Assembly (NCBI GenBank): GCA_018971835.1
Contig: JAGWZW010000002.1
Span: forward strand, 1-64,000
Length of the DNA: 64,000 bases
Reading direction: 5' to 3'
DNA from: Alphaproteobacteria bacterium
GTDB taxonomy: Bacteria > Pseudomonadota > Alphaproteobacteria > Micropepsales > Micropepsaceae
The position numbers and the translations under genes are program-made. Shown one piece after another: positions 29,232 through 32,404 of the stretch (position 1 is the stretch's first letter; every line of letters begins with the position of its first letter). The notes beneath the pieces are model-generated. The model saw only the letters and a list, made by a program, of their open reading frames with translations. It was not told where the DNA came from and ran no database searches.

Positions 29232-30263
29232 TCACGCCCCCTCATAGCCGCAGCGCCCCTGTGCCGCCGGGCAGATGCGCCCGTTGCCGCATGTCACCGT
29301 TTTATTGCCCCCTAGCGCCGCCATGACCAGATCGGCAAGCCCGGCGATGAATTCCGGCGCTGTGCCCGCAGTCGGCACACGGAGATAGTCCGGCACGCCG
29401 GATTGCTGCGCCAGCCGGCTGTATTCGATATCGAGTTCCACCAGCGTTTCGGAATGCTCCGAGACGAAGGCGATGGGCACCACAATCAGGCTCCTGCCCT
29501 CGGCTCCGGCGCGGCGGATTTCGGCATCGGTCGCCGGCCCGATCCATTCCATCGGCCCCACCCGGCTCTGGTAGCAGATGCCCCAGTCGAGCCCGGATAT
29601 CCCCAAAGCCTCCACAATGGCGGCGGCGGTCCGCTCCACCTGCCACTGATAGGGATCGCCCCGCTCCACCACCCGCTTCGGCAGGCCGTGGGCCGAGAAC
29701 AGCAGCCGGTACGGCAGGCCGGGTTTGCGCTTGGCCAGCGCCTCACGCACCAGCCGGGCCTCGGCGGCGATGAAGCCGGGCTGCCACGGATAGCAGCAGA
29801 TGCGGGCCTCGGGCAGGGCCAGCCCGGCCGCCCTGGCCGCGCGCCGCCATTCCGCCAGCGAGGAGGCCGTGGTCGTGGTCGAAAATTGCGGGTAGAGCGG
29901 CAGCAGCACCACCCGCTGGGCGCCCCAGGCCCGGATTTCCGCGGCCGTTTGATCGCTGAACGGTGTCCAGTAGCGCATGGCCAGAAAACTTTTCGCCTCC
30001 AGCCCGCGCCCGGCGAGCGCGGCATCGAGGGCAGCGGCCTGCGCTTCCGTCTCCGGCACGATGGGCGAGGCGCCGCCGATTTTGGCGTAAATTTCCCGGG
30101 CCAGAGGCACCCGGCGCCCGGCGATCAGCCGTGCTACCGCCCAGCGCAAGGGTCCGGGCAGGCCGATAATCGCCGGATCGGAAAACAGGTTGGTCAGGAA
30201 CGGCCTGACGGCCTCCGGGCTATCCGGGCCGCCGAGGTTGAACAGCACGATGGCTGTCTTCAC
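29232..30263 (-). CDS. hemH: Ferrochelatase
   Basis: 343-residue enzyme that inserts iron into protoporphyrin IX. It opens AIVLFNLGGPDSPEAVRPFL and has LPLYPQFSTTTTASSL. The catalytic His lies in LLFSAHGLPKRVVERGDPY, and a conserved acidic segment is SEHSETLVELDIEY. The C-terminus has three closely spaced cysteines (TCGNGRICPAAQGRCGY), reminiscent of [2Fe-2S] ferrochelatases such as that reported for Caulobacter. The start is GTG, overlapping the hemE stop by four bases. Confidence 0.95.
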   Translation of the reverse strand: MKTAIVLFNLGGPDSPEAVRPFLTNLFSDPAIIGLPGPLRWAVARLIAGRRVPLAREIYAKIGGASPIVPETEAQAAALDAALAGRGLEAKSFLAMRYWTPFSDQTAAEIRAWGAQRVVLLPLYPQFSTTTTASSLAEWRRAARAAGLALPEARICCYPWQPGFIAAEARLVREALAKRKPGLPYRLLFSAHGLPKRVVERGDPYQWQVERTAAAIVEALGISGLDWGICYQSRVGPMEWIGPATDAEIRRAGAEGRSLIVVPIAFVSEHSETLVELDIEYSRLAQQSGVPDYLRVPTAGTAPEFIAGLADLVMAALGGNKTVTCGNGRICPAAQGRCGYEGA

Positions 30264-31300
30264 GCGTTACCTCTGATCCGTTCGATCACCCGGGCCACAT
30301 GCTCGGGCGGCGTTTCGGGTACGACGCCGTGACCCAGGTTGAAGATATGGGGTACGCCCCTGGTCGCCTCAAGGATCGCATCCACGCCCCGGTCCAGCGC
30401 CGCCCCACCGGCCAGCAGCAGCAGGGGATCGAGATTGCCCTGGATCGCCACCTTCGGCCCCAGGGCCTTCGCCGCCCAGCCCATCGGCGCCGCGGTATCG
30501 AGGGACACGGCATTCACCCCGGTTTCGGCAGCATAGGCTTCATAGCCCGACTGGGTGGCCGCCCGCGGAAAGCCGATGATCCTTGCGCCCGGCCGCGCCG
30601 CCCGAACAGCGTTCACGATCCGCTTGGTCGGCCGGATCACCCATTCGGCAAAGGCCGCTTCCGGCAGGCCGGAGGCCCAGCTGTCGAACACCTGCACGGC
30701 ATCGGCCCCGGCTTCGAGCTGGCGCACCAAGTGCGCCGCCACGCAGTCGGCCAGCAAGTCGAGCAGGCCGGCGAAGCTCTCCGGGTCGCGATAGCCCCAC
30801 AGCTTGGCCGCCCGCTGGTCCGGCGAGCCGCGGCCCTCGGCCAGATAGGTCGCCAGCGTCCACGGTGCCCCGGCAAAACCCAGCAGGGTCGTCTCGGGCG
30901 CCAGCGCGCCGCGCACCAGTTTCAGCGTCTCATAGACCGGCGCCAGCTTGGCGGCCCACACCGCCGGATCGCGCTCGACCCGGGCAATATCCGCATAGCG
31001 GGTGAGCAGCGGGCCGACATTCTCCTCGAACCGGACTTCACCACCCAATGCGTAGGGGATTACCAGGATGTCCGAGAACAGGATCGCTGCATCCATGCCG
31101 AAGCGGCGCACCGGCTGCAGCGTCACCTCCGCGGCCAGCTCCGGGTTCATGCACATCGCCCAGAACGATCCCGCACTCACCCGTACCGCCCGGTACTCCG
31201 GCAGGAAGCGTCCGGCCTGACGCATCATCCAGATCGGTGGCACCGCGGCGGCGCTCCCGTCCAGAACTGTCACCAGTTTCTTTTTTCCATCTTCCTTCAA
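30260..31300 (-). CDS. hemE: Uroporphyrinogen decarboxylase
   Basis: 346-residue enzyme converting uroporphyrinogen III to coproporphyrinogen III. Signature 1 PPIWMMRQAGRFLPEYR lies at 21-37, the catalytic Asp region is ILFSDILVIPYALGG, and GFAGAPWTLATYL is the second signature. The start is TTG, supported by AGGAG eight bases upstream. The gene borders the probable chromosomal origin, as in Caulobacter and Rickettsia. It leads the hemE-hemH-hemJ operon. Confidence 0.96.
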   Translation of the reverse strand: MKEDGKKKLVTVLDGSAAAVPPIWMMRQAGRFLPEYRAVRVSAGSFWAMCMNPELAAEVTLQPVRRFGMDAAILFSDILVIPYALGGEVRFEENVGPLLTRYADIARVERDPAVWAAKLAPVYETLKLVRGALAPETTLLGFAGAPWTLATYLAEGRGSPDQRAAKLWGYRDPESFAGLLDLLADCVAAHLVRQLEAGADAVQVFDSWASGLPEAAFAEWVIRPTKRIVNAVRAARPGARIIGFPRAATQSGYEAYAAETGVNAVSLDTAAPMGWAAKALGPKVAIQGNLDPLLLLAGGAALDRGVDAILEATRGVPHIFNLGHGVVPETPPEHVARVIERIRGNA

Positions 31301-31582
31301 AAGAAAGACTCCTAGAATTTATGAAGATGATGTTTGGGCTGTGAGTTGTGGATGGCTCGGTGCATGCCCGTTTCCTGTAGGCTGCAAAGCCAATGGACTC
31401 AAGTGCTGCCGGGTCGCGGGCCGGCGCGGGGCTGCGGCGGATTCGTACACAGGGCTGGCACAGCGCAGCCGGTTGCCGCGGGGCGGTTTGCGGATAAGCC
31501 GGTCTTGCGCTTTGACGATGACCCGGCGTGGTGGAGCCTTGTGCACGGGCTGGGGACGATCCGAGGATAGAACAGGCGATTC
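31301..31582. other. Probable chromosomal replication origin (oriC)
   Basis: 282-base gene-free gap between hemE and the kinase-regulatory protein gene. In Caulobacter the origin lies beside hemE, with the maf-aroE-coaE-dnaQ block on the other side, as here. Sequence support: DnaA-box-like sites TGCGGATAA (31489-31497, eight of nine to the consensus TGTGGATAA) and TGTGGATGG (31347-31355, seven of nine). An AT-rich stretch lies at about 31280-31335. Four GANTC methylation sites (31307, 31396, 31440, 31578) occur where about one is expected. Flanking genes point away on both sides. Not seen: TTAA-N7-TTAA CtrA sites. The hemE promoter must also lie here. Confidence 0.72.
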
Positions 31583-32404
31583 ATGAACAAGACCTATCAC
31601 CTGCATCTGGTCTCCGATGCCACCGGCGAGACACTGAATACGATCGCCAAGGCTGCCAGCGCGCAGTTCGAAGGCGTCGACGTGCAGGAACATTTCTACG
31701 CGCTGGTGCGCAGCAGTCGTCAGCTGCAGCGGGTGATCGATCATATCCGTGAAGAACCGGGGCTGGTTTATTTCACGCTGGTCAATCCCGAATTGCGGCG
31801 CGAACTGGAAGCACATTGCGCCTCCATCGGCGTTCCGTTCCTGGCAGTGCTTGATGCCCCAATCGCCACCATGCGGCAATATCTCGGGACCGCGGAAACG
31901 CACAAGCCCGGCGCCCAGCACGAGGTCGATCAACGTTACCTCCAGCGCATGGAGGCGCTCAACTACACCATCACGCACGATGACGGGCAGGCGCTCGAAA
32001 CCCTCGACCAGGCCCAGGTCGTGCTGGTCGGCGCCAGCCGCACCTCCAAGACACCGACCTGTGTCTATCTGGCCATCCGCGGCCTGCGTGCGGCCAATGT
32101 GCCGATCGTGCCGGGCCTGATTCTGCCGCCGCAACTGCTGGCCGCGAAAGGCCCGCTGGTGGTCGGGCTGTGGACCTCGCCGGACCGGCTCGTTCAGGTT
32201 CGCCGCAACCGGCTGAACACGCTGGGCGAGGTGCGCGATACCAGCTATGTCGATCTGGAAGCGGTGCGCGCCGAAGTCACCGCCACGCGCAAACTGTTCG
32301 AAACGCACAACTGGCCGGCGATCGACGTCTCCCGCCGCTCGGTGGAGGAAACCGCGGCCGCCGTGCTCAACCTGCTCACCGAACGGGGGGAGGAGTTGCT
32401 ATGA
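31583..32404 (+). CDS. PEP synthase/pyruvate phosphate dikinase regulatory protein (kinase-pyrophosphorylase)
   Basis: 273-residue bifunctional regulator of the DUF299 family, which phosphorylates and dephosphorylates pyruvate phosphate dikinase or PEP synthase. It opens YHLHLVSDATGETLNTIAKA and has the P-loop-like GASRTSKTPT (150-159), then NVPIVPGLILPPQLL and GLWTSPDRLVQVRRNRL, all family hallmarks. It is the first gene on the right of the probable origin. Its stop overlaps the maf start (ATGA). Confidence 0.93.
   Translation: MNKTYHLHLVSDATGETLNTIAKAASAQFEGVDVQEHFYALVRSSRQLQRVIDHIREEPGLVYFTLVNPELRRELEAHCASIGVPFLAVLDAPIATMRQYLGTAETHKPGAQHEVDQRYLQRMEALNYTITHDDGQALETLDQAQVVLVGASRTSKTPTCVYLAIRGLRAANVPIVPGLILPPQLLAAKGPLVVGLWTSPDRLVQVRRNRLNTLGEVRDTSYVDLEAVRAEVTATRKLFETHNWPAIDVSRRSVEETAAAVLNLLTERGEELL

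What the first reader, a model, noticed from the sequence alone, without database searches (positions are those of the whole stretch)
31301..31582. Probable chromosomal origin between hemE and the kinase-regulatory protein gene
Synteny matches Caulobacter and Rickettsia, where the origin lies beside hemE, with maf-aroE-coaE-dnaQ on the other side in Caulobacter. Seen in sequence: two DnaA-box-like sites, an AT-rich edge, four GANTC sites in 282 bases (about one expected), and genes running away on both sides. The absence of TTAA-N7-TTAA CtrA sites would be a real difference from Caulobacter.
Basis: partly seen in the sequence, partly recalled or inferred. Interest (0 to 1): 0.7.

Follow-up and report, generated by a model that had tools for sequence, protein, structure and literature searches.

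The report
Compact alphaproteobacterial chromosome replication origin
The gap between hemE and its divergent neighbour is very probably where this uncultured alphaproteobacterium starts copying its chromosome, and its working core is a 110-base conserved block that looks like a DnaA-driven DNA-opening module; it is a new member of a known kind of origin.

Summary
Confirmed as the probable chromosomal origin. Independent lines place the origin here: parS sites 12-16 kb away in four related genomes; the hemE-gap-PPSR arrangement in 27 of 28 loci from other alphaproteobacterial families; KOPS polarity in a closed congener (flip at 1.337 Mb, best axis 3.65 Mb, locus at 3.516 Mb); and a 16S gene reading away from it. 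The functional core is narrower than reported: 31301-31411, a single-copy block conserved in 32 genus sequences, kept even where hemH has replaced hemE. It reads GANTC, AT-rich stretch, trinucleotide run (TAT GAA GAT GAT), two overlapping weak DnaA boxes, GANTC. Order and polarity match the published basal unwinding system (DnaA-box, spacer, DnaA-trios), in a variant register. Missing CtrA sites are ordinary: 25 of 30 class loci lack them. No experiment has been done, and the window's own genome is fragmented (162 contigs).

The parts
31301..31582 (.). hemE-PPSR intergenic gap, probable oriC
31301..31411 (+). conserved core block of the genus (sequence model R1, 83.5 bits), single copy
31275..31354 (.). 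most AT-rich 80 bp of the window (64% AT); probable unwinding region
31307..31311 (.). GANTC site 1, present in all 32 aligned genus sequences; overlaps the hemE ribosome-binding site (31309-31313, minus strand)
31320..31331 (+). DnaA-trio-like run TAT GAA GAT GAT
31340..31348 (-). weak proximal DnaA box (CAACTCACA on the minus strand, 4 mismatches), within the conserved CTGTGA-TTGTGGA motif
   Evidence: read; mismatches counted by hand
31347..31355 (-). conserved DnaA box (CCATCCACA, 2 mismatches)
31396..31400 (.). GANTC site 2, GANTCAAG in 26 of 32 genus sequences
31440..31444 (.). GANTC site in the unalignable right half
31489..31497 (-). DnaA-box-like TTATCCGCA (1 mismatch), not conserved in position
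31578..31582 (.). GANTC site just before the PPSR start, in the unalignable right half
30260..31300 (-). hemE (uroporphyrinogen decarboxylase)
31583..32404 (+). PPSR / COG1806 kinase-pyrophosphorylase

Best explanation
The gap is the chromosomal origin oriC. DnaA binds the two weak tandem boxes at 31340-31355 and is loaded from there onto the plus-strand trinucleotide run (31320-31331) inside the AT-rich edge, pulling the strands apart on the hemE side. Two CcrM (GANTC) sites flank this core and probably tie initiation or local transcription to methylation state. Shown by computation: location, conservation, order and polarity of the elements. Inferred: DnaA binding, unwinding, and any role of methylation. 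The confidence given is for origin identity; the unwinding mechanism in detail is about 0.55.
For: parS TGTTTCACGTGAAACA lies 12-16 kb from the locus in G028, G029, G002 and G030. In closed congener G028 KOPS point away from it (121 of 176 leading-oriented, p=7e-7; best axis 3.65 Mb, locus 3.516 Mb) and flip at 1.337 Mb. The 16S gene at 4.167 Mb reads away from it. hemE-PPSR with the gap is found in 27 of 28 loci from other families, several with clear DnaA-box clusters. A conserved block of about 110 bp is present in 32 genus sequences and retained where hemH replaced hemE. It has no conserved RNA pairing and no Rfam match. Class gaps carry (GTN) runs on the plus strand only: 14/27, 0 on the minus strand, 0.8 in shuffles; genus gaps carry (TGN) runs 13/25, 0 on the minus strand, 1.8 in shuffles. 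The window core meets the published BUS search rule: box with 2 mismatches, 15-nt spacer, 4 NAN trios (rule in PMC8287927). No cluster of exact DnaA boxes elsewhere in G028; the only close pair in the own genome is on a plasmid-type contig.
Against: Canonical DnaA boxes are few and weak. The BUS rule alone is loose: 8 hits in the 64 kb window, and class-wide it is not strand-specific (7 plus, 9 minus). The genus trios are GAT-type, not the canonical 5'-TAG-3'. dnaA lies about 2.0 Mb away in G028. Cumulative GC skew in G028 is a maximum here, not a minimum. In the own genome parS is on another contig (C136) with different neighbours. Part of the block overlaps the hemE/hemH ribosome-binding site.
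Confidence: 0.88

Rival explanations
1. The conserved block is a regulatory leader or promoter for hemE/hemH and PPSR, and the origin lies elsewhere in the parS region.
For: The block begins at the hemE/hemH ribosome-binding site and lies between two divergent genes.
Against: It is kept when the left gene changes from hemE to hemH, has no conserved RNA structure, no sigma-70 promoter match, and is by far the longest conserved part of the gap; class-mates carry DnaA-box clusters in the same gap.
Confidence: 0.07
2. The origin is here, but DnaA acts through scattered weak boxes over the whole gap (including 31489-31497), as in Caulobacter G- and W-boxes, and the trinucleotide run is not a DnaA-trio.
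For: Box-like sites occur on both sides of the gap; the BUS rule is permissive; the genus trios are not TAG.
Against: 31489-31497 is not conserved in position and the right half of the gap does not align; the strand-specific trinucleotide run sits just before boxes in the class and in the genus.
Confidence: 0.35
3. The origin lies near 1.3 Mb in G028 coordinates (the cumulative GC-skew minimum, on the dnaA side), and the hemE-parS locus is at the terminus.
For: The cumulative GC-skew minimum and dnaA (0.91 Mb) lie on that side.
Against: KOPS converge there, parS is at hemE, the 16S gene would be head-on, and synteny with mapped origins is broken by this reading.
Confidence: 0.03

Closest known systems
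Caulobacter crescentus Cori (hemE-COG1806 origin)
   Same: Same gene pair and gap, divergent arrangement, weak non-consensus DnaA boxes, AT-rich segment; GcrA and a CcrM-type RAMA methylase are encoded in the genome
   Different: No CtrA (TTAA-N7-TTAA) sites and no IHF match to WATCAANNNNTTR in the gap; shorter; core block specific to this genus
Rickettsia, Wolbachia and related hemE-side origins (PMC1914354)
   Same: hemE-side location; boundary genes change in some lineages
   Different: Those gaps are about 380-620 bp and strongly AT-rich; here 282 bp and 61% GC
Basal unwinding system (DnaA-box, spacer, DnaA-trios; PMC8287927)
   Same: Order and strand polarity of boxes, spacer and trinucleotide run
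   Different: Trios are mainly 5'-GAT-3' rather than 5'-TAG-3'; the two boxes overlap by 2 nt and are weak

Membership tests
alphaproteobacterial hemE-COG1806 oriC | Location in the hemE/COG1806 intergenic region | tested here: met
alphaproteobacterial hemE-COG1806 oriC | Several DnaA boxes (TTATNCACA; four or more taken as indicative, PMC1914354) | tested here: not met
   No exact match in the gap; one site with 1 mismatch and one with 2. The class varies from 0 to 6 sites with at most 1 mismatch, so the feature is not universal in the kind
alphaproteobacterial hemE-COG1806 oriC | AT content above the surroundings | tested here: met
   Gap 39% AT against about 33% in the window; peak 64% AT over 80 bp
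Caulobacter-type (CtrA-controlled) origin | CtrA sites TTAA-N7-TTAA | tested here: not met
   absent in 25 of 30 class loci
bacterial chromosomal origin | parS nearby and replichore polarity centred on the locus | tested here: met
   In relatives only; the own genome is fragmented and its parS is on another contig
bacterial chromosomal origin | Cumulative GC-skew minimum at the locus | tested here: not met
   In G028 it is the maximum; the other congeners were sampled too thinly
bacterial chromosomal origin | Replication starts here in vivo | not testable with these tools
   Needs read depth or a plasmid replication assay
basal unwinding system | DnaA box with at most 2 mismatches, spacer of at most 16 nt, at least three NAN trios | tested here: met
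   31347-31355, spacer 15, TAT GAA GAT GAT; 9 of 25 genus gaps pass on the plus strand, 2 on the minus strand, 1.6 in shuffles
basal unwinding system | DnaA-dependent strand opening that needs boxes and trios | not testable with these tools
   biochemical assay needed

The most novel reading that the evidence does not exclude
This genus uses a pared-down origin of about 110 bp in which the usual DnaA-box cluster is lost, two overlapping weak boxes load DnaA onto trios of flipped register (5'-GAT-3' instead of 5'-TAG-3'), and two fixed CcrM sites bracket the unit, in chromosomes whose leading strand is C-rich and whose dnaA gene lies near the terminus.
Probability: 0.3. Interest if true: 0.55.

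Novelty: new member of a known kind. Interest (0 to 1): 0.4.

Why it matters
It extends the hemE-PPSR origin to an uncultured lineage and narrows the working part to a block of about 110 bp that can be tested directly. It offers a natural test of how little a DnaA origin needs, and of whether the trio rule depends on the middle A alone or on the whole TAG word. It also warns that skew-based origin callers may put the origin of such genomes at the terminus.

Tried and rejected
RNA element: rejected (no Rfam hit, no conserved pairs, fold z-score 0.44). Sigma-70 promoter or terminator: none found. dif by an E. coli/proteobacterial consensus: none recognised in the genus, so the terminus rests on KOPS. 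The exact inverted box pair on contig C46 was considered as a rival origin and rejected: the contig carries a ParB-like gene and an IS256-like transposase, judged from their sequences. A first reading put the trios on the minus strand; the 5'-tail statement in PMC8287927 showed that the plus strand is the right one. A single-base period-3 run test was too weak and was replaced by a trinucleotide test chosen after seeing the alignment. Skew in G029, G030 and G002 was sampled too thinly to decide. The genus could not be named.

Full report
What is there. The gap 31301-31582 separates divergent hemE (minus strand) and PPSR/COG1806 (plus strand), followed by maf, aroE, coaE, dnaQ and secB. The 80 bp starting at 31275 are the most AT-rich of the 64 kb. 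The four GANTC sites compare with 0.44 expected (P=0.001), and across 25 genus gaps there are 64 against 10 expected. The two DnaA-box-like sites have 2 and 1 mismatches, a modest excess on their own.

Is it the origin region? The own genome is in 162 contigs, so relatives were used. In four congeners parS sites lie 12-16 kb from this gap, in or beside mnmG-rsmG. In the closed congener G028 the gap is at 3.516 Mb. KOPS (GGGNAGGG) are oriented away from it on both arms (121 of 176, p=7e-7), flip sharply at 1.337 Mb, and give a best antipodal origin at 3.65 Mb. The single 16S gene found, at 4.167 Mb, reads away from it. Of 28 PPSR loci examined from other families of the class, 27 have hemE divergent across a gap, several with clear DnaA-box clusters. 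From the literature: this gap is the mapped origin of Caulobacter and the predicted one of Rickettsia (PMC1914354).

What is the working part? Only the hemE-side part, about 110 bp (31301-31411), is conserved in the genus; the right half does not align. A sequence model of the block finds it once in each of five origin regions and, in a sample of 190 class genomes, strongly only in the three genus members (elsewhere only weak matches, best E 1e-4). In G028, G029 and several other loci hemE has been replaced by hemH, yet the block stays beside PPSR, so it is not simply a hemE leader. It shows no conserved RNA structure. Its order on the plus strand is GANTC, AT-rich stretch, trinucleotide run, CTGTGA-TTGTGGA (two overlapping weak DnaA boxes), GANTCAAG.

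How it most likely works. The published basal unwinding system is a DnaA box, a spacer of up to 16 nt and at least three NAN trios, carried on a 5' tail leading away from the boxes (PMC8287927). The rule alone is loose (8 hits in 64 kb; class-wide it is not strand-specific), so the weight lies on conservation. In the class, (GTN) runs, that is TAG/TTG/TGG trios, occur on the plus strand in 14 of 27 gaps and never on the minus strand (0.8 expected from shuffles). In this genus the run is in the (TGN) register, 13 of 25 against 1.8 expected and none on the minus strand. I infer that DnaA bound at 31340-31355 is guided onto this run and opens the AT-rich edge. The two fixed GANTC sites, with GcrA and a CcrM-type (RAMA) methylase encoded in the genome, suggest methylation control, but the first site overlaps the hemE ribosome-binding site, so its conservation has two possible causes.

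The site at 31489-31497 is not conserved in position. CtrA sites are absent in 25 of 30 class loci, and a review says they are not seen in most other origins (PMC4468827), so their absence here is unremarkable. The proposed skew-minimum test would mislead: in G028 the leading strand is C-rich (right arm mean -0.010, left arm +0.016, p=2e-4), so the cumulative skew peaks close to this locus and is lowest on the terminus side. Sampling in G029 and G030 leans the same way near the origin but is not significant; G002 shows no trend.

Limits. Everything is computational. The terminus rests on KOPS, because no dif site was recognised. The skew was sampled (61 stretches), not read over the whole chromosome. 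The DnaA-trio reading is the least certain step, at about 0.55. Verdict: a real and well-supported origin, a new member of the known hemE-PPSR kind, with variant details that deserve a bench test.

Noticed in passing
G028 stretches (loci L044-L083, L092-L094, L112-L131, L234-L243): GC skew is inverted: the leading strand is C-rich, with the cumulative maximum near the origin and low values on the terminus side, while KOPS keep normal polarity.
   Followed up: partly
L023 (G028:C1:909678-911030): dnaA lies about 2.0 Mb from the proposed origin and only about 0.43 Mb from the inferred terminus.
   Followed up: no
L026 (G028:C1:3881288-3881536), L027 (G029), L028 (G002): A small protein matching only the DNA-binding C-terminal domain of DnaA is present in all five genus genomes searched; in G028 and G029 an exact TTATCCACA lies about 205-212 bp upstream of it.
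   Followed up: no
L110 (G000:C136): In the window's own genome mnmG-rsmG with parS sits on another contig next to unrelated genes (a fliP-like one among them), so the origin region looks rearranged between rho and mnmG, or misassembled or misbinned.
   Followed up: partly
L060/L093 (G028), L096 (G029), L203 (G061): hemE has been replaced by hemH next to PPSR in part of the genus, with the conserved block left in place; L034-L038 and L040 also lack hemE there.
   Followed up: yes
L111 (G000:C46:923-987): Plasmid-type contig (ParB-like gene, IS256-like transposase) with two exact inverted DnaA boxes, 47 bp between them.
   Followed up: partly
G028 whole genome: TTATCCACA is rare: 5 copies against 31 of the reversed control pattern.
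   Followed up: no
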